A DNA stretch of 48,789 bases from a virus (IMGVR_UViG_3300042323_000574:1-48789); one strand, 5' to 3'; counted from the first letter of the stretch, positions 9,159 through 28,252 are shown. Numbers and translations: made by a program. Notes: generated from the sequence alone by a model not told the origin.

Positions 9159-9300
9159 CGATCCGCTCCTTACTGTACAACCGTCCACAACATCCTTGCC
9201 AGTGGTGGAGAGAGTACTCACTGCGAAGGAACCAACAACCCCCCGGTTTCCCCCTTTCAAGGGGCCGCTTCCACTGTCTGAGGAATTCAAGGAATTCAGA
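9159..9300. promoter_or_regulatory. int/early intergenic control region
   Basis: This stretch separates divergent integrase and early genes. It holds a palindrome CCCCTTTCAAGGGG (9251-9264) and a tandem 9-bp repeat AGGAATTCA (9281-9289 and 9290-9298), the second copy overlapping a Shine-Dalgarno-like AAGGA before the ATG at 9301. Promoters for both directions are expected here, and the repeat and palindrome could be integrase arm sites or operators. No convincing -35/-10 pair was identified. Confidence 0.4.
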
Positions 9301-10293
9301 ATGTCGTCACAATCATCGCCGTCGAAGAATGACGTTGCGGAAATCGAGCAGGAAGCCATAATGCACCCAGATCGGGGCGTAGCTCAGTCTGGTAGAGCGC
9401 TACGTTCGGGACGTAGCGCACTCGCAGAAGAGATAGCCGCGCTTTCTTTTGGTTACCCGCTCGTCCTGAGAGGGTTGCCTAACGACCAGTACCATAGTCT
9501 TCCGGTGCCGTCGAAGAGCCCCCTGTGGGCTTTTCGCAGACACGGCCCGGTGTGGTACTACGAGCAGTTCGTTGCTCGCTCCCATCCTCCGTTCGCGTCG
9601 GACTCCCTCGCAAGAGGGACGCTTGTCCACCTAGTCTTCGAACTAGGCGAGCCTGAATTCCGCCGTCGGGCAGTGCTCGTTCCCGAGAAGTTCTGCACCG
9701 CCACCGGGACACTTAGCTCAGGTAAGGAAGCACGGGCGTGGCTGGCCGACCAGCCCAAGGACGCCATCCTCCTGACCCCGGCAGACGACGCCGTGATCAC
9801 CGGCCTGTGGAAGCAGGCTCAGGACAACGCCGCTGTCCGCGAGATCATCGAGTCCATTGAGGAGCACGAACTCTCGGTGGTATGGGAGCGGGAGGACGGC
9901 CACCGTCTCCGCTGCCGGTTCGATGCTGTCACCCGTGATGGCAGGCTGATCGATTGGAAGACGAGCCGCGAGGCTCGCCCTCTGGAGTCGTGGATCGGGC
10001 CAGCGATAGAGCACGGCTACCACTACCAAGCCGCCCTCTACGGCAGCGGTGCAATCGAGGCTGGCATCTCCGACCGGCCGATGACGTTCATCGTCCTCTC
10101 GACTACCCCCAGCTATCAGGTGCAGGCCGTCACTCTCCCGGCCCCTGTCGTGGACATGTGCCACGACATGATCACACGCGACCTCGATGAGATCGCCATC
10201 CGCACCGAGACAGACAACTGGCTCCCCGCCGGATACGGGGAAGTCCACGAGTTGGCTGTGCCCGATTACCTGCTGCGGAGGTTCCACTCATGA
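9301..10293 (+). CDS. PD-(D/E)XK exonuclease (RecE/lambda-exo-like)
   Basis: Likely 5'-3' double-strand DNA exonuclease that makes single strands for the Erf annealing protein two genes downstream. With the 9301 start (330 aa), D208 in C-R-F-D-A-V and D218-W-K220 form the D...D-x-K nuclease signature, followed by an H-Y-Q-A-A helix typical of RecB/Cas4/RecE-type nucleases. Start choice is uncertain: ATG 9301 (AAGGA upstream), ATG 9361 (AGGAAG upstream) or TTG 9196. All place the partial tRNA-Pro (9373-9417) inside the reading frame, so about 15 N-terminal residues are translated tRNA sequence. After integration the upstream starts would be replaced by host DNA. The stop overlaps the next ATG (ATGA). 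Confidence 0.82.
   Translation: MSSQSSPSKNDVAEIEQEAIMHPDRGVAQSGRALRSGRSALAEEIAALSFGYPLVLRGLPNDQYHSLPVPSKSPLWAFRRHGPVWYYEQFVARSHPPFASDSLARGTLVHLVFELGEPEFRRRAVLVPEKFCTATGTLSSGKEARAWLADQPKDAILLTPADDAVITGLWKQAQDNAAVREIIESIEEHELSVVWEREDGHRLRCRFDAVTRDGRLIDWKTSREARPLESWIGPAIEHGYHYQAALYGSGAIEAGISDRPMTFIVLSTTPSYQVQAVTLPAPVVDMCHDMITRDLDEIAIRTETDNWLPAGYGEVHELAVPDYLLRRFHS
9373..9417 (+). other. attP: Probable attP core: 5' half of a tRNA-Pro gene
   Basis: The sequence reads as a tRNA 5' half: acceptor CGGGGCG (9373-9379), TA, D-stem GCTC (9382-9385), D-loop with GG, GAGC (9395-9398), G, then a perfect anticodon arm CTACG-TTCGGGA-CGTAG (9400-9416) with anticodon CGG (proline). After the anticodon stem the sequence departs from any T-arm and no acceptor 3' strand follows. 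A truncated tRNA beside an integrase gene is the standard sign of an attachment core. Unusually, the phage carries the 5' half rather than the 3' half. Confidence 0.8.
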
Positions 10294-16926: not shown

Positions 16927-17074
16927 CCTGTGCCCCCACTGTGGCCTCCGGCCTGCGTCTGTGAAGGTTGATAGCTCGGGCCTGCCGTCGGACACCCCGG
17001 TGTGCGAGCGGTGCCACGAGACGCTCTGTGCTCGCCGCTGGCGGGGCGAGGTGTGGGTGAGGACGCTGCAATGA
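16871..17074 (+). CDS. Small zinc-ribbon protein, GTG start
   Basis: About 67 aa. C-P-H-C-G and C-E-R-C-H form a four-cysteine zinc ribbon typical of small phage transcription or DNA-binding accessory proteins. The GTG at 16871 is a probable, not proven, start; the same frame is open further upstream inside the membrane gene but reads as non-protein there. The stop overlaps the ATG of the sigma-like gene (ATGA), which supports it as real. Confidence 0.55.
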   Translation: MAKAKPSSSVSKAGVNPTSLCPHCGLRPASVKVDSSGLPSDTPVCERCHETLCARRWRGEVWVRTLQ

Positions 17075-17616
17075 GACGGCTCACCGACGAGCAGAAGAGG
17101 TTGGCTGAATCAGCACTCCAGTATGTGCCGGTGTGCGTGGCCGCGTTCATTGCCCAGCACCCCAGCTACCGCCGCCTGCTGCGGCACTGTGATCTGGACA
17201 GCACCGCCCAGCTGGCCGTGGTGCAGGCGAGCCTGACCTACGATCCAACTAAGAGCCAGCCGCAGACTTACTTTGGGTCGGCCATCAAGCACGCCCTACT
17301 CAAAGAGGTGAGGCGTGCCAAGCGTAGCCGCGAGGGCGACGACGGCAGGGTTAACCTACCCAAGGCGCTCGGCCTCCAGCTGAAGGGGGCAGGCAGAGAG
17401 GATGCACTCCGCTGCCTTGAGGCGCTCCCCTCCTACTCACGATCTGTGGTGCAACGGCATGTCCTCCACCACAGATCGATGGCACAGATCGCACGCGAGG
17501 ATGGCGTGCAGTGGCAGACAGTCAAGGCTAGGCTGACGCAGGCGTATGATCAGCTTTCGGCTTGCGTGAGCGAGAGTTTAGGAAGCACTTTGGATACCCC
17601 AGATCACGAGCCCTGA
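17071..17616 (+). CDS. Sigma-70-family-like transcription factor
   Basis: 181 aa. An A-V-V-Q-A-S-L-T-Y-D-P-T-K-S, then T-Y-F-G-S-A-I-K-H-A-L-L-K-E-V-R stretch (about residues 48-85) matches sigma region 2 (the A.D....Y....I...L..E.R pattern). Residues about 120-165 (L-P-S-Y-S-R-S-V-V, then S-M-A-Q-I-A-R-E-D-G-V-Q-W-Q-T-V-K-A-R-L) match region 4, a helix-turn-helix. It could steer host RNA polymerase to phage promoters. The ATG at 17071 overlaps the zinc-ribbon stop. The last 89 bases run antisense to the serine recombinase 3' end. Confidence 0.75.
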   Translation: MRRLTDEQKRLAESALQYVPVCVAAFIAQHPSYRRLLRHCDLDSTAQLAVVQASLTYDPTKSQPQTYFGSAIKHALLKEVRRAKRSREGDDGRVNLPKALGLQLKGAGREDALRCLEALPSYSRSVVQRHVLHHRSMAQIAREDGVQWQTVKARLTQAYDQLSACVSESLGSTLDTPDHEP

Positions 17617-18301
17617 ACGCCAGCCGGATGTAGCGTGGCGTCCACCTCTTGCTCACCGCGTACCGTCGGACGAACTGACTACGCAGGTCTGGCTTGTTGA
17701 TCATCTGCTCGATGCGGGCCGGGCTCATGCCCGAGTCACGCATGACACACAGCTTCTCGACCTGCTCCCTTTCGTCGGGTGCCTCGATCCAGCCCAGCCC
17801 CGACTGACGCCAGCCGATGGGTGCCCCCGTCCTCTGCCCAGCGTGCGGCTTGCCCATCGCCAGCTTGTGCTGGATCACCTCCCTCGTTCGCTCCGCGATG
17901 TACCTCCGCTGCATCTGGGCAGCAGCGAGGAAGATGTGCAGGGCGAACTCACCCATCGGGGTTGATGTGTCGAGCCCGAGATCGAGTGCGACGAAATGCA
18001 CACCCCGATGCTTGAGTCCCTCGATGCAGTTGGCCCCATCGATCAGCGAGCGGAACGCCCGGTCGAGGTGGCTGACCACGATGTAGTCCCCCCTCCGGGC
18101 CGACACCCAGACCTGCACGCCAGCTGGTCGGTCAGCGAATCCCTTGCTGCCCGACACGGCTGCGTCATAGAACCAGCCCGCAAGCGTGGCCCCCTTGGGC
18201 TTGAGCGTCAGCTTGAAGTGCCGCTCGCACGCTTCCTTCTGGACATCCTCCGTAGCACTCTGCTTCGCGGTCGAGTGCCGACCGTACATAAAGACCTGCA
18301 T
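17528..18301 (-). CDS. Serine recombinase (resolvase/invertase family)
   Basis: 257 aa site-specific recombinase. The N-terminus M-Q-V-F-M-Y-G-R-H-S places catalytic Ser at residue 10, followed by S-G-S-K, R-P-A-G and V-S-H-L-D-R-A-F-R-S motifs of the resolvase domain, a long helix (A-A-A-Q-M-Q-R-R-Y-I-A-E-R-T), then a helix-turn-helix C-terminal part. The length fits resolvase/invertase-type enzymes, not large integrases. AAGGA six bases before the ATG at 18301 decides the start. The substrate sites are not visible. It is a second recombinase besides the tyrosine integrase and overlaps the sigma-like gene tail-to-tail. Confidence 0.88.
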   Translation of the reverse strand: MQVFMYGRHSTAKQSATEDVQKEACERHFKLTLKPKGATLAGWFYDAAVSGSKGFADRPAGVQVWVSARRGDYIVVSHLDRAFRSLIDGANCIEGLKHRGVHFVALDLGLDTSTPMGEFALHIFLAAAQMQRRYIAERTREVIQHKLAMGKPHAGQRTGAPIGWRQSGLGWIEAPDEREQVEKLCVMRDSGMSPARIEQMINKPDLRSQFVRRYAVSKRWTPRYIRLAFRARDLGYPKCFLNSRSRKPKADHTPASA

Positions 18302-18396: not shown

Positions 18397-19068
18397 CTAT
18401 GCTGAAGGTAACATGCCGAATGCGAGGCGACACCGCACGGTATCAATGACCTCGTCTATCTGACCAAACGTGACCGCCGTCCCCATGGACTCGTGGCGGT
18501 AGTGCAACCGCGGGCAGGCCGTGAGGTTGAGAAGGTAGGCATCCCCCTTCCTCACGGTATCCCGATCCGCCAGCTGGTCGAGCGTGACCGGGAGCACTTG
18601 CCCCTTCGACCCCTCGATCTCCTGCTTGACGGGGCAGAGTCGCGTCCACCCGTCCCACACCGGGAGCTTGACCCTCCCCGCCGGAGTACTCAGTACCCAC
18701 GGCAGCCAGTAGTTGCTGGCACATGGGATGATGACGTACCCGGCGGTCATCGCCACGCCGTCCTCGCTGGGCATGGAGATCGCAGCGTAGGGCCAGAGCG
18801 GCTTGTTGCCATACCGTATCGAGCGAGGCGATAGCTTGATGCCGCTGTAGCACATGCCGACTTCGACCTTGGCACCTAGCTCCTTGCCCATGGACACCAT
18901 CCTCCGCTGAAGGATGGCCGTGTGATCCCGCACCAGCCCCTTGAGGAACCACTGCGAGTCGCACTCCTTGAGCAGGGCAGTCCTGCCCAATGGCACCAGC
19001 ACGTTGCCGTAGTTGGATACGGAAACGAACTGCTCGACCCAACTCTCTTCTTTCTTCCGAGCCATCAT
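18397..19068 (-). CDS. Unknown 223 aa protein coupled to the VWA gene
   Basis: No recognised family. It begins M-M-A-R-K-K-E-E, is a mixed alpha/beta protein with several aromatic strands, and has no membrane segment. Its start overlaps the VWA-metallopeptidase stop (ATGA), so it is probably made together with the MoxR-VWA pair and could be a partner or substrate. The longer upstream open frame lies inside the VWA gene and is not used here. Confidence 0.7.
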   Translation of the reverse strand: MMARKKEESWVEQFVSVSNYGNVLVPLGRTALLKECDSQWFLKGLVRDHTAILQRRMVSMGKELGAKVEVGMCYSGIKLSPRSIRYGNKPLWPYAAISMPSEDGVAMTAGYVIIPCASNYWLPWVLSTPAGRVKLPVWDGWTRLCPVKQEIEGSKGQVLPVTLDQLADRDTVRKGDAYLLNLTACPRLHYRHESMGTAVTFGQIDEVIDTVRCRLAFGMLPSA

Positions 19069-20606
19069 GCACCTGCTTTCTTGGTTAGGTCTACGAACTT
19101 TGCCCATGCCGGGACGGGGTAGTAATCGCACGGTGCCTTGACACCAGCGATCACCACCTTCGCCCGCGGCTTGTCACACCACGCTGTCTCAAGGTCTGTC
19201 ACCACGAGGATGGCATCCGGCCGCACCTCCTTGTCCAGCTGCTCGATCAGCTGTCCCATGTCGGTGCCGCCACCACCCTCGATCTTCATGCGGCCGACCG
19301 ACCGCACGACCTGATCGTTATGCAGTGCTGCGTCACCGCAGATCACACGCACTGACTGCAACCGACGCACCCCCTTGGCGATGCAGTCGAGTGCCCGAGT
19401 GGTGAGGTCATGGTCATAGCCCCACCCCATCGAGCCGCTCGTGTCGAGCAGCACCACCACGTTGGGCATCTCCTTCTTGATGCCACGCAGACGCGGCCCA
19501 TTGGGATCACCCTGCCTGCGGGACAGGCGGCGGAACGTGTAGTCGGGTGACCCGAGCGGTGTTGCCACTGCCCGTGCCACTGCTGCACGCAGCACATCGA
19601 AGGGGTCGGGCTGCGGTCGCAGCTTGAACTCGACCGCCGCCTTCAGTTCCCCGGGGACTGAGCCCGGAGCCTTAGCCTCCTGCTCCTCGATGGCTTTCTC
19701 AAGCTCACTCACCATCGAGTACTCGCGGTCGGCGTGACCCGCGTCGGGCGGGAGTTCGTAGCTGCGGGGCTGGCCGTCGGCACCGCTTCCACCGGCACCC
19801 TCTACTGGCTCCGCATCCCCGCCATCACCAGACTGATCTCCGCTCTCCTCGCCATCCCCGCCCTCGCCACCCGCACCATCAGCCTCGCCATCTTCCTCGT
19901 CGCCATCAGCTTCGCCGTCGGATGATGCATCCTCCTCGCCGTCCTCCGAGTCGGAGCCAGCACCGGACTCCGCATCGTCTTCGCCTTCCTCATCACCGGG
20001 TTCGTCCGACTCGCTATCCCCATCACGATCTCCATCTCCCTGCTGCTGATCGTCATCGTCGTCCTCCTCGCTGGTGGAATCGTCCTCGTCCTGCTCGTCG
20101 TCCGACTCCGAGTCGTCCGACTCCTGCTGCTGCTCACGCTGCTGCTGCTTCTCCTCCTCCTGCTGCACGAGCAGGCGGTAGTACTCAATCGCGGACAGCT
20201 TGGGCGGGAAACCCATGCGCTGGTAGGTGTAGACACCTTCCGGTGCATCCTGCCCCCACGCATCGAGCAGCTGGTTGACCACGATATCGCAGGCGATGTT
20301 CCACAGCAGGCACATCTGTGCCGTGGGGTTGTCGCCCAGAACACGCTTGCCGAGGCGGCAGTGGCCGAGCACCACATGCAGCACCTCGTGCAGGATCGTC
20401 CATCGCCCCGTCTCAGGCGTGACGCGGTTGACGTAGGACGGGTCGTAGTAGAGCCGACCATACTGATCAACCGCCATCGTCTTGCAGCCCGGGGCACGCA
20501 CGGGGATCAGCCCGTAGATTGTCTGAGTGAGGTAGGGCACGACCGCCTTGCAGCTGGTGCGAAACTTCGCCACCTTCATCCGCGTCTCGTCGTTCACATT
20601 GTCCAT
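19065..20606 (-). CDS. VWA-like metallopeptidase (partner of MoxR ATPase)
   Basis: 513 aa. The N-terminal domain has H73-E-V-L-H77 with H82 nearby (H-E-V-L-H-V-V-L-G-H), a zinc-peptidase motif. The C-terminal VWA domain has MIDAS residues D388-T-S-G-S, T448 in G-G-T-D and D471 in V-T-D-L. Between them lies a linker, about residues 155-300, made almost only of Asp, Glu, Ser, Gly and Gln. This two-domain layout matches predicted metal-dependent peptidases of the DUF2201 type that work with MoxR AAA ATPases. The MoxR gene is directly upstream in the same operon. AAGGAG precedes the ATG. Substrate and role in the phage are unknown. Confidence 0.85.
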   Translation of the reverse strand: MDNVNDETRMKVAKFRTSCKAVVPYLTQTIYGLIPVRAPGCKTMAVDQYGRLYYDPSYVNRVTPETGRWTILHEVLHVVLGHCRLGKRVLGDNPTAQMCLLWNIACDIVVNQLLDAWGQDAPEGVYTYQRMGFPPKLSAIEYYRLLVQQEEEKQQQREQQQESDDSESDDEQDEDDSTSEEDDDDDQQQGDGDRDGDSESDEPGDEEGEDDAESGAGSDSEDGEEDASSDGEADGDEEDGEADGAGGEGGDGEESGDQSGDGGDAEPVEGAGGSGADGQPRSYELPPDAGHADREYSMVSELEKAIEEQEAKAPGSVPGELKAAVEFKLRPQPDPFDVLRAAVARAVATPLGSPDYTFRRLSRRQGDPNGPRLRGIKKEMPNVVVLLDTSGSMGWGYDHDLTTRALDCIAKGVRRLQSVRVICGDAALHNDQVVRSVGRMKIEGGGGTDMGQLIEQLDKEVRPDAILVVTDLETAWCDKPRAKVVIAGVKAPCDYYPVPAWAKFVDLTKKAGA

Positions 20607-20678
20607 CGTCAGTCTCCTTGTCTCATGTGGTCTGGCCGGGCAGGCAACGCACCTGCCCGGCTACTAACAACCAGCCGT
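20607..20678 (-). promoter_or_regulatory. Leader element: box plus hairpin (VWA gene)
   Basis: Read on the minus strand, the MoxR stop TGA begins the box TGAACGGCTGGTTGTT, followed by a hairpin GCCGGGCAGG / CCTGCCCGGC (plus 20635-20661) and then AAGGAG before the VWA ATG. One of a repeated set in this operon. Confidence 0.6.
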
Positions 20679-21794
20679 TCAGCGAAGCGACTTCGCCAAC
20701 TCGACAATCGGGGCCAGCACCTTGGCGGGCGGGGCATACTTCCTCGACGCCGCCGCCTGATTGAGCAGGCCGGTGTAGCGGAGGGGAATCTCCGGCCCCG
20801 TGTCCTTCGCCAGCCCGGCGAAGAACCCAGCTGCTGCGTTCCATCGATCCTCACTGAACCCCTGACCGAGCATGGCCGAGGCGATGGATGCACACACGCA
20901 GAACGTCAGGTCGGGACGAGCCGGGTTGTGCTTGAACTTCGCAGTGCCATCGACCACCGCGAGCGGATCGACCAAGTCGAACGCCGCGTTGAACTGGCAG
21001 AACTGATCGGCTGCCACCTCACCGACGTTGCCCGCCACCATCTTGCGGACGAACGACTGATCGCTGATCAGGTCAGCACCAGCTGCATCGGCAGCGGCCA
21101 CGCACTTGACTGCGTTGTGCCACGACCGCTGCGATGGGTAGGCCCGGCTCTCGTCGGAGGGCGGGACGTTGTCCAGCCCGTCGGCCCGACGCAGGAAGGC
21201 AGAGAACCTGCCGCCCCACTTGGGGATCATCGACTCCCAATCGGACGGCACGAGCGGGAAAGTGGGAGCCGCCCACTGCCCGGTCGCCATGCCGTCGAGC
21301 CACTCCTCCCGCTCCACCTTCCACTCGTGGTGGTAAAACCGATTGTTCATCGCCAGTTCCAGCGGCGTGCCATTAGGGCACAGTTCCTCTGGGTTGCAGG
21401 CCGCTGCCATCAGCGTGTCGTGGTCGAGGTGAACGCTGCCGACGTGACGCTCAGTGATGAGCGTGAGCAGGGCAGCCCGCACTGACGGGGACACGGCGGT
21501 GATCTCATCGAGGAAGAGCAGACCACCCGGGGTGAGGAACGCCTCGACCCACTCGGCAGGCATGAGGCGGCAGAGCTTCGCCTTCAGGTCGGGCACCGGC
21601 ATGCCACCGAAATCCTCCGGGGCACACTGACTACCGATCAGTGCGACGAACCGACGGCCCATCGCAGCGGCGAGTGCCGCCATGATGGTGGACTTGCCAG
21701 TACCCGGCAGACCCCGGGCGAGGGCAGGCACGCGGGCCTGCAAGGCAATGAAGAACGCAGCGTTGACGTTGGCGAACGCATTGAAAGCAACCAT
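20679..21794 (-). CDS. MoxR-family AAA+ ATPase
   Basis: 371 aa. G-L-P-G-T-G-K-S-T (28-36) is the Walker A site and L-L-F-L-D-E (92-97) the Walker B site; a C-N-P-E segment is the sensor 1 region. MoxR ATPases act with VWA proteins as chaperone-like remodelers that insert metal or switch partner complexes. The adjacent VWA-metallopeptidase is the obvious partner. The start at 21794 is chosen because AAGGAG lies nine bases upstream; an earlier ATG at 21803 touches the Shine-Dalgarno. A 300 aa protein is encoded just upstream. Confidence 0.85.
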   Translation of the reverse strand: MVAFNAFANVNAAFFIALQARVPALARGLPGTGKSTIMAALAAAMGRRFVALIGSQCAPEDFGGMPVPDLKAKLCRLMPAEWVEAFLTPGGLLFLDEITAVSPSVRAALLTLITERHVGSVHLDHDTLMAAACNPEELCPNGTPLELAMNNRFYHHEWKVEREEWLDGMATGQWAAPTFPLVPSDWESMIPKWGGRFSAFLRRADGLDNVPPSDESRAYPSQRSWHNAVKCVAAADAAGADLISDQSFVRKMVAGNVGEVAADQFCQFNAAFDLVDPLAVVDGTAKFKHNPARPDLTFCVCASIASAMLGQGFSEDRWNAAAGFFAGLAKDTGPEIPLRYTGLLNQAAASRKYAPPAKVLAPIVELAKSLR

Positions 21795-21885
21795 TGGAAT
21801 CATCTCCTTGAAGAACCGTGAAAGAACAGGGGCAGGCCGGAACACCCGGCCTGCCCCGACGCAGCACACAGAATCAATCAGCCGT
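21795..21885 (-). promoter_or_regulatory. Leader element: box plus hairpin (MoxR gene)
   Basis: On the minus strand the stop TGA of the upstream gene starts the box TGAACGGCTGATTGATT. A perfect 12-bp hairpin GGGGCAGGCCGG / CCGGCCTGCCCC (plus 21830-21858, 5-base loop) follows, then AAGGAG before the MoxR ATG. The short TTCTTTC tract after the stem is a weak terminator tail. Confidence 0.65.
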
Positions 21886-22788
21886 TCACGCAGAGAGGTC
21901 GTTCAACTCCGCGAGAGCGAGGGCACTGTCGGTCGCAGCCAGCAGCTGCTCGATCTCGGTCAGGCCCACGCCGAACATGGCGGCGTAGCCCTTGACCTTC
22001 TCCATCATCGAGGCGAGCCGATCCTTCCTCGACTGCACGCCCTGCTTGGTCATGCCGAGCGAGTTGGTATCGTCGGTTGACGTAGCCCCGGTGCCGAGCA
22101 GGTCGGCATTGATCTCAGCCGACAGTGCCTTGGCATCCTCGATCACCGACGCCATCGCATCGCGAGCCACCTCCGGGTTGTCGCACAACTGGAACTGACC
22201 GAGGCTGAAGATGCACTCGCTGTCAGGGTTGGTGGCAGACCGCTCCAACTCCGAGGCCAGCTGCCGGTAGCGGTCGATGTACGCACCGGGCAGGAACCAC
22301 AGACCGCCGTTGCCCTTGACCGACGACGCATACATCTCAGACTCGATGGCCTTCTTGATCAGCGCACCCGTGGTGGTGGGGCAGTAGTAGTTGACCCTCT
22401 CCAGATAGCGGTCGCTCAGGTCACGACTCATCTGCGGGTCACCCGGCAGACCATCGAGGGTGATCCACGCATGCCGCTCGTCGGCCTTGGCCGTGAGCAG
22501 GTAGGGCAACTCCGACTTCTCCGCACCCGGGATGTGCTCACGCACGTCGAACCCGAGGACACGCCGGTCAAGGGGGAAGACACGCAGCTTCTTCCGCTTG
22601 CCGTAGTGCTCTCGCAGCGTGTCGAGCAGTGCCGAACGCAGTGCGATGGCACGCTTCTCCCTGCGGGGAAGGAGCTTCTTCCACCCCATCTTCGTGAAGA
22701 CCTGCTGCATCACGATGCAGCGAACCTTGCCAGCCGTCAGCCAAACCAGACCGCCCTTTGTGGACGGGGGAATCTTCTCGATGTTCAT
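21886..22788 (-). CDS. Unknown 300 aa protein upstream of MoxR (possibly DUF6744-like)
   Basis: The N-terminal half is alpha/beta with a W-F-L-P-G-A-Y segment; the C-terminal half is helical (D-R-L-A-S-M-M-E-K-V-K-G-Y-A-A-M-F). The overall layout recalls phage proteins labelled DUF6744, but I cannot confirm this. It is the first gene after a promoter-like motif (22862-22896) and precedes MoxR and VWA, so it probably belongs to that module. The ATG at 22788 has AAGGAG six bases upstream; the ATG at 22794 directly abuts it. Confidence 0.7.
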   Translation of the reverse strand: MNIEKIPPSTKGGLVWLTAGKVRCIVMQQVFTKMGWKKLLPRREKRAIALRSALLDTLREHYGKRKKLRVFPLDRRVLGFDVREHIPGAEKSELPYLLTAKADERHAWITLDGLPGDPQMSRDLSDRYLERVNYYCPTTTGALIKKAIESEMYASSVKGNGGLWFLPGAYIDRYRQLASELERSATNPDSECIFSLGQFQLCDNPEVARDAMASVIEDAKALSAEINADLLGTGATSTDDTNSLGMTKQGVQSRKDRLASMMEKVKGYAAMFGVGLTEIEQLLAATDSALALAELNDLSA

Positions 22789-22861
22789 CGCCATCTCCTT
22801 GTGATGGGCAGCGACATGCCACCCATAGGTAATCAGCCGTTCGTAAATGAGTACTTCGTTT
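22789..22861 (-). promoter_or_regulatory. Leader element: box and weak hairpin after promoter motif
   Basis: On the minus strand, about 25 bases after the promoter-like motif, the box GAACGGCTGATT occurs, then an imperfect hairpin ATGGG...CCCAT (plus 22804-22826), then AAGGAG. Here the box is not tied to a stop codon, which argues that it belongs to the leader of the following gene. Confidence 0.5.
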
Positions 22862-22896
22862 CCCCATTATCTAGACGTGTCAACTTTTCCAGACTT
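22862..22896 (-). promoter_or_regulatory. Promoter-like motif, copy 1 (minus)
   Basis: Minus strand reads AAGTCTGGAAAA, G, TTGAC, seven bases, GATAATGGG. A second copy at 29428-29461 on the plus strand matches at 28 of 34 positions. GATAAT resembles a -10 hexamer; the TTGAC lies only 12 bases upstream of it, too close for a normal -35, so the site may use another factor or overlap an operator. It starts right at the upstream gene stop and would drive the MoxR-VWA operon. Confidence 0.6.
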
Positions 22897-23210
22897 CAGG
22901 CTTTCGCCCGTGATCCACGCACAGTTCCGGTGATGGAGTACTTTCTGAGCACCATCGCTGCCGTCACCTTGCGTCGTCGCCCCGCCACATGCAGCGGTGC
23001 GTAGTTTCCATCGCGGTCGAGGGCGTCGAGCCACTCGCATGTGCCGCGCTTGCAGTGCCTGACGAAACGGAATGGCCCCTTCGCAGACATCGCCACTGTC
23101 TCCCCGGTCGAGAGGCGGATCATCGGCCCGCCTCTCGCCCGGAACCGGGTGCCCGGGGTGAGCACCACCCGCGGGCTGACCCGGTACGATTCGGAGTACT
23201 GCGTCTTCAT
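22896..23210 (-). CDS. Hypothetical basic protein, 104 aa
   Basis: Unrecognised. A beta-rich N-terminal half with G-T-R-F-R-A-R-G-G and a basic C-terminus (R-R-R-K-V). GGGAGG precedes the ATG at 23210, which overlaps the stop of the 26 aa peptide. The longer open frame upstream lies inside the TGT-like gene. Confidence 0.65.
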   Translation of the reverse strand: MKTQYSESYRVSPRVVLTPGTRFRARGGPMIRLSTGETVAMSAKGPFRFVRHCKRGTCEWLDALDRDGNYAPLHVAGRRRKVTAAMVLRKYSITGTVRGSRAKA

Positions 23211-23287
23211 GTCGCACCTCCCAGCGTGAGCAACTCGATCACCAACCGCAGGATCGTGACGACGATCCAGACCTGAGCCTCTGTCAT
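23207..23287 (-). CDS. 26 aa single-span membrane peptide
   Basis: GAGGAGGT precedes an ATG that overlaps the upstream stop (ATGA), and its own stop overlaps the next ATG. The peptide is almost all hydrophobic (V-W-I-V-V-T-I-L-R-L-V-I-E-L-L-T-L). The strong ribosome site and double coupling make it credible despite its size. Function unknown. Confidence 0.55.
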   Translation of the reverse strand: MTEAQVWIVVTILRLVIELLTLGGAT

Positions 23288-24117
23288 GCAGCACCTCCTC
23301 TGTGTGCAGACCACCACCCACCGACGAGCCCAGCCAACGCAGCTGGACTCTCGACCCGATCCAACCTGTTGCAGCTGGCATCCGCCCGCCGCTTGATGCC
23401 ACCCGCCATGCGTGCCACATGGTTCTCGCCGGGGTTGACCCGCCGCCATGTGTTGTGGTTCACCGCCACGTTGCATGAGTCGCAGCTATCGAAGGGGTAG
23501 AGGTGGAACATGGACTGCCCCCGCATGAGGTGCATCCACGGCCTCCGATACCCGCTGCCCTCGCAGCACAACTCATCCATCGCAGCGAACGCCTCGCGGA
23601 TGCGGGCGTGCCATGCAGGCGTGCCCACCTTGGCGTACTCACCGCTGCTACCCACGGCTATCCACTGGTAGCCGCCCTCGATCATGCCAAGCAGGTGATC
23701 GATGGGTTCGTGCATGTGCCAGACCATCATGCATCGATCCACCAGATCAGCCCGCCCGTAGACCACCGACAGACCAGCGGTGAACTCGCACGCCAGCTGG
23801 TGGTTCTGCTCGACTGACCCGCCGATCACGTCGGGGATAACGAGCACTGCCTGCGGGCAGGCGTCGAGGATGCGGATGCCCCATCGGGCGAACGCATCCC
23901 AATGCTGCTCATCCAGCGCCTTGCCCGAACGCCACGCACTGAACGCTCCGTTGTCCACCATGAGCAGCTGGTCGTCGCCAACCAGACTGATGGCCTGCTG
24001 CAACTGCCGCCCCAGCTTGGAGCGGTGGTAGTAGCTGACGCAGAACGAGTGCCCATCCAGCTGGTCGAGCAGGTGGGCAGGGTTGAGAGGCAACCCGAAC
24101 ACAGTCCGCTTCTTCAC
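23284..24117 (-). CDS. TGT/DpdA-like TIM-barrel protein
   Basis: 277 aa. The order of motifs, V-D-N-G-A-F-S (54-60), I-P-D-V-I-G-G-S, W-I-A-V-G-S-S-G-E-Y and H-L-M-R-G then P-F-D-S-C-D-S, follows the layout of queuine tRNA-ribosyltransferase-like (TGT, DpdA) barrels, where the DxGxF aspartate and a later Asp act in base exchange. Such enzymes swap guanine for a 7-deazaguanine in RNA or DNA. No queuosine or dpd synthesis genes were seen nearby, so the activity is uncertain; it could be an inactive or divergent barrel. The start overlaps the 100 aa gene stop. Confidence 0.55.
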   Translation of the reverse strand: MKKRTVFGLPLNPAHLLDQLDGHSFCVSYYHRSKLGRQLQQAISLVGDDQLLMVDNGAFSAWRSGKALDEQHWDAFARWGIRILDACPQAVLVIPDVIGGSVEQNHQLACEFTAGLSVVYGRADLVDRCMMVWHMHEPIDHLLGMIEGGYQWIAVGSSGEYAKVGTPAWHARIREAFAAMDELCCEGSGYRRPWMHLMRGQSMFHLYPFDSCDSCNVAVNHNTWRRVNPGENHVARMAGGIKRRADASCNRLDRVESPAALAGLVGGWWSAHRGGAA

Positions 24118-24416
24118 TCGTCACCCCCTTCCATCAAGGCGTAGAAGTTCGACCGCTCCAGCAGGAAGACGAACGCATCCTCCCTGCACCACTGCTGTGC
24201 GTCGGCCTGCTTGGCGAACACCTTGCATCCGACCACGCAGTTCGACCCCTCCTCGTGCCGCTCCGCACACCACCCGCGGAATGGCACCTCCCTCACGCGA
24301 TAGACCGCACCCCTGCCCACGTTGGCGACGAGCAGCGTGCGTCCCCGTGCTCCCTTCTTGCAGAGGTTGGGGATCACACGCCGCGTCCACGTCAGGTTGA
24401 AGCTGCCGGTGCTCAT
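24114..24416 (-). CDS. Hypothetical protein, 100 aa
   Basis: Unrecognised small basic protein with beta-rich N-terminal half and several cysteines (C-K-K, W-C-A-E, N-C-V-V-G-C), no obvious zinc motif. Both ends overlap neighbours by four bases, so it is translationally coupled. Confidence 0.7.
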   Translation of the reverse strand: MSTGSFNLTWTRRVIPNLCKKGARGRTLLVANVGRGAVYRVREVPFRGWCAERHEEGSNCVVGCKVFAKQADAQQWCREDAFVFLLERSNFYALMEGGDE

Positions 24417-24736
24417 GTGGCACCCCCTTCCTGAAGCATGCGGACATACGCCTTGGCATCGATCAGCCGGGAGAACCGGCGGCTCTTGCCATCGGGCAGA
24501 CGCAGGTCATAGGCCACGACCTTGACCTCCCTGTGCTGCGAGATGGGCAGCGACCGGCCAGTGCGGTCGAACTCCACCGTGTAGGTGCCCTCGCAGCGGT
24601 CGATGGTGTACGGAGCGATGCCCCGCAGGTTGACCATCGACCACCGCTGCGGTTCGAACAGCACGCCCGTCCGCTCATAGTTTCGACGCTCGGTCGCACG
24701 CTGCCGCCGCATCGCTTGGTAGTTCCGATTCCTCAT
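24413..24736 (-). CDS. Hypothetical basic protein, 107 aa
   Basis: Unrecognised. An Arg/Asn/Gln-rich N-terminus (M-R-N-R-N-Y-Q) is followed by a beta-rich part and a C-terminal helix (S-R-L-I-D-A-K-A-Y-V). TAGGAGG before the ATG at 24736 decides the start. First gene of a coupled group that begins with a leader element. Confidence 0.7.
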   Translation of the reverse strand: MRNRNYQAMRRQRATERRNYERTGVLFEPQRWSMVNLRGIAPYTIDRCEGTYTVEFDRTGRSLPISQHREVKVVAYDLRLPDGKSRRFSRLIDAKAYVRMLQEGGAT

Positions 24737-24820
24737 CGCTCGTCCTCCTAGAAACACAGCGACCCCGGTCAGGTCACTCGCCTGCCGGGGTCACTGCTGT
24801 GTGTGAAATCAATCAGCCGT
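24737..24820 (-). promoter_or_regulatory. Leader element: box plus long hairpin
   Basis: Minus strand: stop-linked box TGAACGGCTGATTGATT, then CACAGC and a hairpin GACCCCGGCAGG / CCTGACCGGGGTC (plus 24761-24792) extended by CACAG/CTGTG, then TAGGAGG. Among the strongest hairpins of the set. Confidence 0.65.
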
Positions 24821-25267
24821 TCAGCTAATCACCTTGCCGCCCGTCACGAACCCATCACCCTTCCGCACCTGAGCGAGAGCCATCGCCCGCACCACGTCTT
24901 CCGGTGCATCGGAGAACACCCGAACATCCACCTGCATGGTCACGTTCACCGTCCGCGTGACGGGGCAAGGCGGATCGACACGCTTGAGGAGGGAGTCAAT
25001 GTCGCAGCGTGTCGAGTGATGCACCTCGCTGTCGTGCGTCAGTTCGTGCTGCACGTTACGCAGGGCGGCGATCATCTCCGGCACCGCTGCGATCTGGTCG
25101 ATGATCGACTGCCACTGCTCGTCGGTGGCCGAGGCATGGCCGGGCGTCGATGCCAGCCCGTAGTTCATGCGCTCCAGCTTGACAACCCCTTGCCCCTCGT
25201 CGTTCTCAATCCACGCCTTCTGCTCGCACACGTCGCTGCCCATCACCCACTGGCTGCTCTTGCCCAT
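24821..25267 (-). CDS. Hypothetical protein, 148 aa
   Basis: Unrecognised. The N-terminal half is charged helical; the C-terminal part has a V-T-M-Q-V-D-V-R-V-F strand and D-A-P-E-D-V-V-R. Its 5' leader is a near-twin of that at 26240. The ATG follows GGGAG. Confidence 0.7.
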   Translation of the reverse strand: MGKSSQWVMGSDVCEQKAWIENDEGQGVVKLERMNYGLASTPGHASATDEQWQSIIDQIAAVPEMIAALRNVQHELTHDSEVHHSTRCDIDSLLKRVDPPCPVTRTVNVTMQVDVRVFSDAPEDVVRAMALAQVRKGDGFVTGGKVIS

Positions 25268-25357
25268 GATTCAGTACTCCCTCTTCGTGTCATCACTCAA
25301 CCTGCGAAGGTGCAGGGATGCAGGCTGTGCCCATGCCCAGCCTGCGACCGCGTACCC
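25268..25357 (-). promoter_or_regulatory. Duplicated two-hairpin leader, copy A
   Basis: Minus strand: TGAGGGTACGCGGTC, hairpin GCAGGCTG / CAGCCTGC (plus 25320-25345), hairpin CCTGC / GCAGG (25301-25316), then GGGAG, AGTACTGAATC and the ATG. The same layout and flanks occur at 26240-26344 with compensatory stem changes. It lacks the CGGCTGATTG box. Confidence 0.6.
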
Positions 25358-25810
25358 TCAAGACCTCGACGCCCGTATCACTGTGGGTCGGTACTCGACC
25401 TGCTCACAGTCGGTCACCCAGACACGCCCGTACCCGGTGCCCCGATACTGCGACGGCTCCAGCACCTCGCAGTTGTCACGCCACCCGCTGGAGAGATCAG
25501 CCACAGTCCACCCGTACTTGGGCTTGTCATCCCGCCACCCATAGAGCGGGTCGTCGGGCGTGACGAGGTGCCGATCAGCGTCGAGCAGCCACTCATCGCG
25601 GGTGCGGTACAGCTTCCAGCCATCGAAGCGCACCACGCCCACGATCATGCCGCGATCCCCCGTCCTGCGGTGCTCACGCCGCGGAGTCTCGATGATGTAG
25701 ACCAGCTTGCCGAACATGTGCTCGGGCAGCTTGTAGCTGCGTGTCTCAATCGTCTTGCGTCCATGCACCAGAGACGAGGCGAAGGGACGTTGAACAAACA
25801 GACCGTGCAT
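25358..25810 (-). CDS. ASCH-domain protein
   Basis: 150 aa. The N-terminal pattern Q-R-P-F-A-S-S-L-V-H-G-R-K-T-I-E-T-R, then V-Y-I-I-E-T and G-M-I-V-G-V-V-R-F matches the ASCH fold, a PUA-like beta-barrel that binds or acts on RNA or modified bases. Nearby TGT-like and Gp88-like genes make a nucleic-acid modification theme possible, but that is inference. Confidence 0.75.
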   Translation of the reverse strand: MHGLFVQRPFASSLVHGRKTIETRSYKLPEHMFGKLVYIIETPRREHRRTGDRGMIVGVVRFDGWKLYRTRDEWLLDADRHLVTPDDPLYGWRDDKPKYGWTVADLSSGWRDNCEVLEPSQYRGTGYGRVWVTDCEQVEYRPTVIRASRS

Positions 25811-25891
25811 GCGAAACCCTCCCGTGTGTGAATGACCCCAGCCAGCCCGAGCAACGTGCCCGGGCTGGCGACCGCGTGCCCCTACTACCGA
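25811..25891 (-). promoter_or_regulatory. Leader element: hairpin with degenerate box
   Basis: Minus strand: a diverged box (CTGATCGG), CACGCGGTCGC, then hairpin GCCAGCCCG / CGGGCTGGC (plus 25841-25869) whose loop ends in GCACGTTGC, then GGGAGG. The GCACGTTGC loop also occurs in the leader at 26756. Confidence 0.5.
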
Positions 25892-26239
25892 TCAGACAAC
25901 CATCCCGAGGTCGAGCTTGCGTGCCACCTCCAGCGACCGGACGAACTCCTCCAGCCGCAGCTTGACCCGGGTCAGGTCAACCTCCTCGACCAGATCGTTG
26001 GCGACCTGCGTCAGGTAGACGCCGTCGCCTTCGATGCCCCACAGCGAGGCGTGCCCGTCATCGACCAGCACCCCGTTGCACCGGATGGAGATCACCACCC
26101 CGACGTGCATCCACTCGCCGCTCGACTGCGAGTATTCGTCTTCCACGATGGTGGCTCGCACCTCGACGCTCTGGAGGTGCTGCGACAAGTAGTGCCCGGG
26201 TTGGGCGTCGTCGCGGAACTGTGCTGCAAACTTGTTCAT
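25892..26239 (-). CDS. Hypothetical protein, 115 aa
   Basis: Unrecognised alpha/beta protein with an acidic middle and a helical Leu/Val-rich C-terminus. GAAGGAG and a TACTGAATC segment precede the ATG, as for the gene at 24821. Confidence 0.7.
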   Translation of the reverse strand: MNKFAAQFRDDAQPGHYLSQHLQSVEVRATIVEDEYSQSSGEWMHVGVVISIRCNGVLVDDGHASLWGIEGDGVYLTQVANDLVEEVDLTRVKLRLEEFVRSLEVARKLDLGMVV

Positions 26240-26344
26240 GATTCAGTACTCCTTCGTGCCATCGAACACCGCGAAGATGCGGGGATGCGGGCAGCAGCCG
26301 ATGCCACTGCCCGCGACCGCGTACCCTCACAATCAATCAGCCGA
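26240..26344 (-). promoter_or_regulatory. Leader element with box and two-hairpin leader, copy B
   Basis: Minus strand: stop-linked box TGATCGGCTGATTGATT, TGAGGGTACGCGGTC, hairpin GCGGGCAG / CTGCCCGC (plus 26287-26314), hairpin CCGC / GCGG (26269-26282), then AAGGAG, TACTGAATC, ATG. Compared with copy A, three stem pairs differ on both sides and stay paired. Confidence 0.65.
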
Positions 26345-26755
26345 TCAATGGCCGATGTACTTCCCGGGCAGCAGATTCTGCTGTGCTCCGAATAGGCTGC
26401 GACCGTAGGACATGACGCAGTAAAACCGTGTGCCATCCAGATCGGTGCCATGCTGGTCATGCCAGTGCGGCATGATGCGGGGATTGAATCGCACCTCCCC
26501 GGGCCAGTTGCTGTACGCAGGCACCCACGGCGTGAACGCGAACGACACGTTCCGGCACAGCACCCAAGCGCACACGTCTTTGTTCGCGCCGCCGTGGATG
26601 CGCTCGGCTACCTTCCGGCTGTTGCGCAGGTAGCACCCCGCCATGACCAGCGTGGACGTGTCGGGGTCATGGTAGGTGACGTGCCCATCGGGGTGACGCA
26701 CCTGCCACTTGCGGAAGTTCTCACCCTTGGCGAGATGGAATCGGACGCGGTACAT
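26345..26755 (-). CDS. Hypothetical protein, 136 aa
   Basis: Unrecognised. It contains a Y-H-D-P-D-T-S segment and several aromatic strands, no membrane helix. GAGGAG precedes the ATG at 26755; the in-frame ATG at 26770 overlaps that site. Begins after a leader element. Confidence 0.7.
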   Translation of the reverse strand: MYRVRFHLAKGENFRKWQVRHPDGHVTYHDPDTSTLVMAGCYLRNSRKVAERIHGGANKDVCAWVLCRNVSFAFTPWVPAYSNWPGEVRFNPRIMPHWHDQHGTDLDGTRFYCVMSYGRSLFGAQQNLLPGKYIGH

Positions 26756-26842
26756 GGTTCTTCTCCTCATGAAATGCCACGACCCCGGTCAGGCAACGTG
26801 CCAGCCGGGGTCGTGACGGTGTGTTGAAATCGATCCGGTCAA
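26756..26842 (-). promoter_or_regulatory. Leader element: box plus long hairpin
   Basis: Minus strand: the box CACGGCTGATTGA contains the upstream stop codon (GGC-TGA), then hairpin CACGACCCCGG / CCGGGGTCGTG (plus 26778-26815) with inner stem GGC-ACGTT-GCC, then GAGGAG. Confidence 0.65.
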
Positions 26843-27823
26843 TCAGCCGTGGTTGCCGATGGCGACGATGCCGCCGAACACGAACGAGCCGTCATCCTTC
26901 CGGGCACCGCAGGCGTGTGCGTTCGCGCCCTTGTAGCCCACGCAATCGCCGCACTTGCCGGAGCACGACAAGGCCCGCTCATAGCCCAGTGCCCGGGCAG
27001 CCTCACGCACAGCGGCGTGGTACGCGGGGTCGTCATAGCGGTTGTAGCCCTTCTCCTTCCGCATGAACTTCTTGTCGATGTTCACGGCAAGGAACCGCTC
27101 CCGGGTCACGGGCAGGCCGAGCATCTTCTCCATGAACTCGGCATCGCCGTCATAGATCGACCCGCTCGACACGTTGAGAACGTAGTTCGTGGGAAATGCC
27201 GCCCCGGTGCCGTGCCAATCCACGAACAGCTGCCACGATTTCGAGTACCCGTAGCACAGAATGTCCTGACGCTGGCGCAGCAGGTTCCACCAGAATTGCA
27301 TGGTGGACATGGAGTCGAAATCGCCGTCAACGTACAGCCGGAACGTGATATCGACGGGCAACACCTTGAAGGCGTCGATGATCGCTCGCCGGTTGAAACG
27401 CAGCAGCAGCGTGTTCATCAGTTGGCGAAGGTAGCCGCCGGGCGTGCGCCACGCCTTCTTCGAATAGCACCATTCCGCACAGTCTCCCGCACCCGGGCAG
27501 GTGACGATGGGGAGAGCGGAGAAGGCCACGAACGGCAATTTCATGTTGCCATGCATGGCGAAGATGGAGAACGGCAACGTGCCCGCCCGCATGCAGGCGA
27601 CAAACCGCGTCATCTCCTCCCGCCAGCCCCGCGGGGTGGCCGATCCGGCACGGCGTGCGGCCTTTCGCACCTTCTTTTTCATCGACGCCCCGGGCAGCGT
27701 CACGGGCAGCGTCAACGCGACACGCTCAATGGCGGTCAACGCATCTTCCATCGATCCGGCCCGCATGCATTCCCAAGCAAGGGCAAGGGCAGCAGCGTTC
27801 GAAAACTTAGGCTTGTATCCCAT
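26843..27823 (-). CDS. Gp88-like Cys-rich phage protein
   Basis: 326 aa. C109-P-G-A-G-D-C115-A-E-W-C119-Y and a C-terminal C-S-G-K-C-G-D-C cluster follow the layout of a phage protein family known as Gene product 88, which looks metal-binding (possibly an iron-sulfur or radical-SAM-like fold). Its biochemical role is not established. The N-terminal 90 residues are basic and helical. AAGGAG precedes the ATG at 27823. Confidence 0.6.
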   Translation of the reverse strand: MGYKPKFSNAAALALAWECMRAGSMEDALTAIERVALTLPVTLPGASMKKKVRKAARRAGSATPRGWREEMTRFVACMRAGTLPFSIFAMHGNMKLPFVAFSALPIVTCPGAGDCAEWCYSKKAWRTPGGYLRQLMNTLLLRFNRRAIIDAFKVLPVDITFRLYVDGDFDSMSTMQFWWNLLRQRQDILCYGYSKSWQLFVDWHGTGAAFPTNYVLNVSSGSIYDGDAEFMEKMLGLPVTRERFLAVNIDKKFMRKEKGYNRYDDPAYHAAVREAARALGYERALSCSGKCGDCVGYKGANAHACGARKDDGSFVFGGIVAIGNHG

Positions 27824-27915
27824 CGTCGGTACTCCTTGAAATGAAACGACCCGCCGAGGGGAAGTTCCCGGGCGGGCCGCATAGGGTTTGTGGGTCGTCA
27901 GAAACAATCAGCCGA
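27824..27915 (-). promoter_or_regulatory. Leader element: box plus hairpin
   Basis: Minus strand: stop-linked box TGATCGGCTGATTGTTT, then hairpin CCCGCC / GGCGGG (about plus 27850-27876) with an alternative ACGACCC / GGGTCGT pairing, then AAGGAG. Confidence 0.55.
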
Positions 27916-28182
27916 TCACGGGCCAACCATCACGATGCGGTCATAGAACCGCCATTTCTTGGCGTCCCCGCGGCCGTGGGCGTAGCCGTCGATCATGTCG
28001 CCCACGTCCATGCTTCGAAGCTTGTGGGGCAGATACGTCACGACGAAATGCAGCAGCCCCGGATTCCAGTGCTCCTCCGCGTGGCGGATGACTCCGGCGA
28101 GCGATGCATACTGACGGGACATGCTCCCGTCTTCACTGTCGGTAGTGATGATCACGAACGATTCACGTTGGCCGTGTGCCAT
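27916..28182 (-). CDS. Hypothetical protein, 88 aa
   Basis: Unrecognised small alpha/beta protein. The ATG at 28182 has AAGGA eight bases upstream; the open frame to 28254 would translate the leader element and is not used. It is the first gene of the long minus-strand operon. Confidence 0.65.
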   Translation of the reverse strand: MAHGQRESFVIITTDSEDGSMSRQYASLAGVIRHAEEHWNPGLLHFVVTYLPHKLRSMDVGDMIDGYAHGRGDAKKWRFYDRIVMVGP

Positions 28183-28252
28183 GGTCTGATCCTTTGCATG
28201 GATGGTGGCGGGGAGTCTCAATCGCTCCCCATCCATGAACAACCAGCCGATC
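28183..28252 (-). promoter_or_regulatory. First leader element of the minus operon
   Basis: Minus strand: box GATCGGCTGGTTGTT, then hairpin ATGGATGG...GGGGAG / CTCCCC...CCATCCAT (plus 28192-28237), then AAAGGA. No gene ends here, so the box belongs to the leader of the next gene. Confidence 0.55.

What the first reader, a model, noticed from the sequence alone, without database searches (positions are those of the whole stretch)
18397..22788. Phage-encoded MoxR / VWA-metallopeptidase module with an acidic linker
A 300 aa protein, a MoxR ATPase, a VWA protein with an HExxH zinc motif and a long Asp/Glu linker, and a 223 aa unknown form one co-directional unit behind a promoter-like motif. MoxR-VWA pairs are mostly known from cellular genomes, where they remodel or activate other enzymes. 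Their task in a phage is unknown; possibilities include protein activation, host takeover or defence against other phages.
Basis: partly seen in the sequence, partly recalled or inferred. Interest (0 to 1): 0.7.

Follow-up and report, generated by a model that had tools for sequence, protein, structure and literature searches.

The report
Phage MoxR ATPase–VWA protein-remodelling module
This stretch of a phage genome carries a known but functionally uncharacterised pair of phage genes, an ATP-driven ring motor and a metal-binding partner protein, flanked by two genes of unknown function; the same pair is common in phages such as N4, so the new parts here are its unusual acidic tether, its flanking genes and a repeated control element, not the pair itself.

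Summary
Four minus-strand genes lie at 22788-18397: a 300-aa orphan (P0004), a MoxR-type AAA+ ATPase (P0003), a DUF2201 protein with an HExxH domain, a 144-aa acidic linker and a VWA/MIDAS domain (P0002), and a 223-aa orphan (P0001). All ATPase, MIDAS and zinc motifs are intact.

The framing as a mostly cellular pair does not hold. P0003 and P0002 match phrog_1297 and phrog_1314. These are the families of N4 gp24/gp25, core genes of N4-like phages; tblastn with the N4 proteins finds 803 and 651 phage records. In 71 of 79 other viral loci a MoxR gene lies within 1.5 kb upstream of the VWA gene. The 'HNH endonuclease' label on phrog_1314 is unsupported.

P0004 has a probable syntenic counterpart with weak DUF6744 similarity in one relative (L031). 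P0001 is an orphan, 68% identical between two genomes that are otherwise ~99% identical.

Most likely mechanism: a MoxR/VWA remodelling machine in which the ring pulls on a client held by the MIDAS face, with the acidic linker as tether, as in Rea1. The client is unknown.

Also found: a repeated intergenic element (10-mer plus hairpin) before three of the four genes. New member of a known kind; interest moderate.

The parts
21886..22788 (-). P0004, 300-aa orphan; first gene of the module, position of a DUF6744-like gene in relative L031
   Evidence: ORF with AAGGAG 6 nt before the ATG. No Pfam, PHROG, NCBIfam or PDB match. Weak alignment to the syntenic gene of L031 (10 of 1000 shuffles reach the score).
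20679..21794 (-). P0003, MoxR-type AAA+ ATPase, 371 aa (phrog_1297; N4 gp24 family)
   Evidence: phrog_1297 3.7e-43; AAA_5 7e-8, bpMoxR 1.2e-6. Walker A GLPGTGKS 28-35, Walker B LLFLDE 92-97, sensor-1 N134, Arg finger R152, sensor-2 R223 conserved.
19065..20606 (-). P0002, DUF2201 protein, 513 aa: HExxH domain (residues ~20-145), acidic linker (149-292), VWA/MIDAS domain (383-507); phrog_1314, N4 gp25 family
   Evidence: PF13203 2.2e-27, PF09967 4.7e-12; phrog_1314 2e-44. H73 E74 H77, N103 A105 D107 N111, D388 S390 S392, T448, D471 invariant over 12 aligned phage sequences.
19731..20162 (-). Coding region of the acidic linker of P0002 (residues 149-292)
   Evidence: 63 D/E and 4 K/R in 144 residues. 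The same place holds long disordered inserts in L031, L038 and L069.
18397..19068 (-). P0001, 223-aa orphan, overlapping P0002 by ATGA; N-terminal half diverged between two near-identical phages
   Evidence: 68% aa identity to the G001 allele while flanks are ~97-99.5% identical. In residues 167-223, 13 of 14 differences are at third codon positions, so it is coding; residues 2-108 are about 42% identical.
22804..22839 (-). Intergenic element before P0004: CGGCTGATTA (22830-22839) plus hairpin (22804-22826)
   Evidence: 10-mer scan, 8 hits against 0.4 expected, all at gene ends on the minus strand; fold.
21829..21884 (-). Intergenic element before P0003: CGGCTGATTG (21875-21884) plus 12-bp hairpin (21829-21857)
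   Evidence: fold z-score -3.0
20635..20677 (-). Intergenic element before P0002: CGGCTGGTTG (20668-20677) plus 10-bp hairpin (20635-20661)
   Evidence: fold z-score -3.0

Best explanation
The module is a phage version of the MoxR/VWA protein-remodelling machine, in the lineage of phage N4 gp24/gp25. P0003 forms an ATP-driven AAA+ ring (inferred). P0002 is its adaptor: the VWA domain sits on the ring, its MIDAS metal grips an acidic residue on a client protein, and the N-terminal HExxH domain acts as a second client-binding or clipping domain. The acidic disordered linker is a long flexible tether, as in Rea1/Midasin and NorD. ATP hydrolysis then pulls on, strips or activates a phage or host client during the early/middle phase of infection. 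P0004 and P0001 are accessory or client-selecting proteins of this phage lineage. Shown: gene order, domains, intact motifs, conserved pairing in phages, recurrence of the linker insert. Inferred: ring formation, VWA docking, pulling, timing. Unknown: the client.
For: Domains and motifs. Pairing: adjacent or nearly so in N4, Delftia phage RG-2014, Rhodothermus phage RM378, cyanophage S-TIM54, Moorella phage MTATph1, Rhizobium, Sinorhizobium and Vibrio phages; MoxR within 1.5 kb upstream in 71 of 79 further viral loci and 13 of 24 cellular loci. Solved relatives of the P0003 family by sequence profile include Midasin, CbbQ, NorQ, CobS and RavA, remodelling or chelatase motors that work with VWA/MIDAS domains. 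NorQ/NorD: ATP hydrolysis and MIDAS both needed, VWA assigned to the ring pore, disordered linker in NorD (PMC9976466). Rea1: a flexible D/E-rich region connects to the client-binding MIDAS domain, which can dock on the AAA+ ring (PMC11603028). N4 gp24/gp25 are middle transcripts (PMC4193335).
Against: No client, ring or activity is shown for any member in the papers read. The Midasin match is partly a sum over several AAA modules (best single module only 13 bits for P0003 alone). HExxH conservation suggests that catalysis may matter in most members, so a pure adaptor reading may be incomplete. P0001 and P0004 may be unrelated cargo. The linker may do more than tether.
Confidence: 0.62

Rival explanations
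1. ATP-dependent protease: P0003 unfolds or feeds a client held by the VWA domain into the HExxH domain of P0002, which cuts it as a zinc metallopeptidase.
For: H73, E74, H77 and the N-x-A-x-D-xxx-N motif are invariant over 12 aligned phage sequences; Pfam names the domain 'putative metallopeptidase'.
Against: RM378 has EEIIH in place of HExxH, and L123 lacks a regular HExxH match, so catalysis is not universal. No proteolysis has been shown, and HExxH alone does not prove activity.
Confidence: 0.22
2. Anti-phage or conflict system carried by the phage (MoxR-vWA ternary type), excluding competing phages.
For: bpMoxR Pfam match just over cut-off (28.2 against 27 bits). P0001 differs strongly between two near-identical phages, as genes under conflict often do.
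Against: No PADLOC match for P0001, P0002 or P0004, and only weak AAA matches for P0003. No beta-propeller, VMAP, iSTAND or effector domain found. The pair is a core gene set of N4-like phages (PMC4193335).
Confidence: 0.07
3. Cofactor or metal insertion (CobS/CobT- or NorQ/NorD-like chelatase or metallochaperone) acting on a phage or host enzyme.
For: Distant matches to CobS and NorQ and phrog_249 'porphyrin biosynthesis' 4.7e-8. An acidic linker before VWA is also known in CobT/ChlD (own knowledge).
Against: No CobN-like or other chelatase subunit and no metalloenzyme client identified; NCBIfam finds no CobS/CobT equivalog.
Confidence: 0.06
4. P0002 is an HNH endonuclease, as phrog_1314 and many RefSeq phage records label it.
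For: PHROG annotation and RefSeq product names.
Against: Pfam finds DUF2201_N and DUF2201/VWA only, in P0002 and in N4 gp25 (3.1e-87 and 1.4e-46), and no HNH domain.
Confidence: 0.01

Closest known systems
Phage N4 gp24/gp25 family (phrog_1297/phrog_1314; core genes of N4-like phages, Schitoviridae)
   Same: Same families by profile, same gene order, same motifs, phage-borne.
   Different: Window proteins are only ~24-27% identical to N4; long acidic linker; flanked by P0004 and P0001; the phage shows no close cultured relative (terminase matches named phages only distantly).
NorQ/NorD and CbbQ/CbbO (MoxR/VWA activators)
   Same: MoxR-type ATPase next to a VWA protein whose N-domain and VWA are joined by a disordered linker (NorD).
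   Different: N-terminal domain is DUF2201_N with HExxH; no known client; distant in sequence.
Rea1/Midasin (Mdn1)
   Same: Best PDB profile match of the AAA family; flexible D/E-rich tether to a MIDAS domain.
   Different: Rea1 is one giant eukaryotic chain with six AAA modules and a ~1700-aa linker; here the ATPase and MIDAS are separate genes.
MoxR-vWA ternary conflict systems (VMAP, iSTAND, beta-propeller; PMC7159879)
   Same: MoxR plus vWA core.
   Different: No third component or effector domain detected; DUF2201 is not mentioned in that paper's main text.

Membership tests
N4 gp24/gp25 (phrog_1297 + phrog_1314) pair | ATPase in phrog_1297 | tested here: met
   3.7e-43 over residues 12-309
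N4 gp24/gp25 (phrog_1297 + phrog_1314) pair | DUF2201_N + DUF2201 VWA protein in phrog_1314 | tested here: met
   2e-44; PF13203 and PF09967 in both P0002 and N4 gp25
N4 gp24/gp25 (phrog_1297 + phrog_1314) pair | ATPase gene directly upstream of the VWA gene, same strand | tested here: met
   72-nt gap in the window; same order in N4
MoxR/VWA remodelling machines | Complete AAA+ motifs and MIDAS motif (DxSxS, T, D) | tested here: met
MoxR/VWA remodelling machines | Hexameric ring, ATP hydrolysis, complex with VWA, client remodelling | not testable with these tools
   needs biochemistry
Zinc metallopeptidase | HExxH plus further ligand | tested here: met
   HEVLH 73-77; D107 in NIACD is a candidate third ligand, invariant; ligand role inferred
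Zinc metallopeptidase | Proteolytic activity | not testable with these tools
   none shown for the family in the papers read
MoxR-vWA ternary conflict systems | Third component (VMAP, iSTAND, beta-propeller, FtsH type) or effector domain | tested here: not met
   no such Pfam match in the four proteins; P0003 only touches bpMoxR
DUF6744 (for P0004) | Match to PF20529 | tested here: not met
   no match at E<=10; only the syntenic L031 gene, 5e-4 and below cut-off
Known anti-phage defence systems | PADLOC family matches | tested here: not met
   only weak generic AAA matches for P0003, nothing for the other three
HNH endonuclease | HNH domain | tested here: not met
   no Pfam HNH match in P0002 or N4 gp25

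The most novel reading that the evidence does not exclude
The four genes form one machine in which a conserved motor pair (P0003/P0002) is aimed by P0001, a fast-changing adaptor exchanged or diverged between otherwise near-identical phages in answer to a variable host or rival target, with P0004 as a lineage-specific partner: a phage-borne, re-targetable protein-remodelling or counter-defence machine.
Probability: 0.07. Interest if true: 0.75.

Novelty: new member of a known kind. Interest (0 to 1): 0.36.

Why it matters
The gp24/gp25-type pair is among the core genes of N4-like phages without an assigned function and is mislabelled 'HNH endonuclease' in many public records; a culturable member (N4 in E. 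coli K-12) makes its function directly testable. Correcting the label and showing the motor/MIDAS architecture and its spread outside Schitoviridae turns an overlooked core phage gene pair into a clear hypothesis: a protein-remodelling machine with an unknown client.

Tried and rejected
DUF6744 for P0004: no direct match. HNH nuclease label: rejected by Pfam. Defence: no convincing PADLOC match. AlphaFold2 of P0001 (2 sequences) and P0004 (alone) gave pLDDT 33 and 44 and were not used for fold searches. Homologues of P0001 and P0004 in named phages: none; in IMG/VR by single-protein scan only the sister contig G001. Large alignments A3/A4 could not be used for collection scans; a three-sequence alignment (A6) worked. 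P0001 against the two genes downstream of the VWA gene in L031: no similarity. Sigma-70 promoters: none found. Intrinsic terminators: the hairpin between P0004 and P0003 scores terminator-like but its tail (TGTTCTTTCA) is weak. Rfam: no match. CRISPRi-ART paper (PMC11879866): its genome-wide screens were T4, T5, SUSP1 and PTXU04, so it gives no gene-fitness data for N4 gp24/gp25.

Full report
OBSERVATION. The window is a 48,789-base virus record. The four genes lie on the minus strand, in the order P0004 (22788-21886), P0003 (21794-20679), P0002 (20606-19065), P0001 (19068-18397). P0002 and P0001 overlap by ATGA; the other gaps are 91 and 72 nt. P0002 contains PF13203 DUF2201_N (2.2e-27) and PF09967 DUF2201/VWA (4.7e-12); P0003 matches AAA_5 and, just above cut-off, bpMoxR. 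In PHROGs, P0002 is phrog_1314 (2e-44) and P0003 phrog_1297 (3.7e-43). P0001 and P0004 match nothing significant.

MOTIFS. Aligned with phage homologues, P0003 keeps Walker A, Walker B, sensor 1, arginine finger and sensor 2. P0002 keeps H73-E74-H77, N103, A105, D107, N111, and the MIDAS residues D388, S390, S392, T448, D471. The linker at residues 149-292 holds 63 acidic and 4 basic residues. Long disordered and often acidic inserts sit at the same place in L031, L038 and L069, and L066 has a similar insert by eye; N4 gp25 has none. The linker is therefore a recurrent, variable insert; the window version is the most acidic of those compared.

THE PAIR IS KNOWN IN PHAGES. N4 gp24 and gp25 are annotated 'ATPase' and 'HNH endonuclease', but gp25 is DUF2201_N + DUF2201 by Pfam (3.1e-87, 1.4e-46), with no HNH domain. 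Both are in the 14-gene core of N4-like phages ('24 Unknown; 25 vWFA domain') and are middle transcripts in N4 (PMC4193335); PMC2784036 lists them as AAA ATPase and vWFA protein. tblastn with N4 gp25 and gp24 finds 651 and 803 phage records. Order and adjacency are kept in Rhodothermus phage RM378, cyanophage S-TIM54, Moorella phage MTATph1, Rhizobium phage RHEph22, Sinorhizobium phage Phosso, Ruegeria phage V13 and Vibrio phage 1.238.B; in PA5oct-like phages an annotated homing endonuclease and small genes lie between, and in Vequintavirinae and Bacillus phage G the genes are further apart. In 79 further viral loci found with the DUF2201 alignment, 71 have a MoxR gene within 1.5 kb upstream on the same strand; 4 of the 6 without one have the VWA gene near the contig start. 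In 24 cellular loci, 13 do. Many loci are close relatives, so these are not independent counts.

THIS LINEAGE. G001 (IMGVR_UViG_3300044643_000906, 61,753 bases) has a 127-base terminal repeat, so it is probably a complete circular or permuted genome, and matches the window at ~99% except at P0001 and at 25.9-27.8 kb. L031 (contig G002, 65 kb) has a terminase 42% identical to the window's, a MoxR 34% identical to P0003 and a VWA protein ~34% identical to P0002. Its gene upstream of MoxR matches DUF6744 at 5e-4, below cut-off, and aligns weakly with P0004 (10 of 1000 shuffles reach the score). P0004 is therefore probably, not certainly, a conserved third component. P0001 has no counterpart detected there. 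In the MoxR tree the window pairs with L031 (0.95) and then RM378 (0.95) on long branches. Named phages give no match to P0001 or P0004.

P0001. Between the window and G001 it is 68% identical, inside DNA that is otherwise ~97-99.5% identical. Residues 167-223 differ at 14 nucleotides, 13 of them third positions, so it is a constrained coding gene; residues 2-108 are about 42% identical, with changes spread over all codon positions. Allelic replacement or fast divergence of the N-terminal half fits; the cause is unknown.

EXPRESSION. CGGCTGRTTR occurs 8 times in the window, all on the minus strand and all at gene ends between 20668 and 28249 (0.4 expected, no shuffle reached 8). In most gaps the 10-mer follows (once overlaps) the stop codon and is followed by a GC-rich hairpin of differing stem sequence, a Shine-Dalgarno sequence and an ATG. 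Copies precede P0004, P0003 and P0002. Folding z-scores of ten gaps run from -0.7 to -5.5. No Rfam match. The 10-mer was noticed by eye before it was counted, so the chance estimate is optimistic. The hairpins lack clear T runs, so they look more like processing or translation-control sites than terminators (inference).

MECHANISM. Profiles of the P0003 family match Midasin best in the PDB, then CbbQ, NorQ, CobS and RavA, among general AAA+ proteins such as Clp and VCP; with P0003 alone the best single Midasin module scores only 13 bits, so this places it in the MoxR/Midasin group rather than proving a special link. NorQ/NorD shows that ATP hydrolysis and the MIDAS are both needed, and the authors assign the VWA domain to the ring pore (PMC9976466). 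Rea1 shows a flexible D/E-rich tether to a client-binding MIDAS domain that can dock on the ring (PMC11603028). The simplest model is a split Rea1/NorQD-like machine with an extra HExxH domain. Whether that domain cuts is open: it is conserved in most members, but RM378 has EEIIH.

VERDICT. Observation confirmed; the 'mostly cellular' framing is wrong; remodelling is the best reading, with a protease as main rival; the client is unknown. The pair is a new member of a known kind. Interest 0.36, lifted a little by the unknown function of a widespread core phage pair, the P0001 divergence and the repeated intergenic element.

Noticed in passing
window 20668-28249, minus strand: Repeated intergenic element: 10-mer CGGCTGRTTR (8 copies, 0.4 expected) at gene ends, followed by GC-rich hairpins of differing stem sequence before the next start codon; no Rfam match.
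   Followed up: partly
window 18397-19068 against L013:2854-3495: P0001 is 68% identical between two phages that are otherwise ~99% identical; divergence is concentrated in the N-terminal half.
   Followed up: partly
window 25896-27831 against L015 15657-16998: Second divergent patch between the two near-identical phages, with different gene content and length (1936 against 1342 nt).
   Followed up: partly
window 23284-24117, minus strand: 277-aa protein matching phrog_887 (queuine tRNA-ribosyltransferase, 2.4e-29); possibly DpdA-like, i.e. 7-deazaguanine DNA modification.
   Followed up: no
window 17002-17616 (+), 17528-18283 (-), 8313-9359 (-): A sigma-70-like factor, a serine recombinase (PF00239) and an integrase (phrog_1) in one phage genome; the first two overlap at their 3' ends.
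   Followed up: no
public records of phrog_1314 members, e.g. N4 gp25 (L007:3165-4307): 'HNH endonuclease' label on DUF2201/VWA proteins is unsupported by Pfam; in PA5oct-like phages an annotated homing endonuclease sits next to the gene, a possible source of the label.
   Followed up: partly
L011 (MT835968.1) 4345-7330: Record labelled 'Bacteriophage sp.' looks bacterial (sugar-kinase-like gene, phosphatase-like genes) and carries a MoxR next to a DUF2201-like protein with two copies of the HExxH-type region (one of them NxxxH).
   Followed up: no
window 25358-25810 and 26843-27823, minus strand: ASCH-like (weak, 0.016) and GP88 (1.7e-15) proteins in the same block.
   Followed up: no
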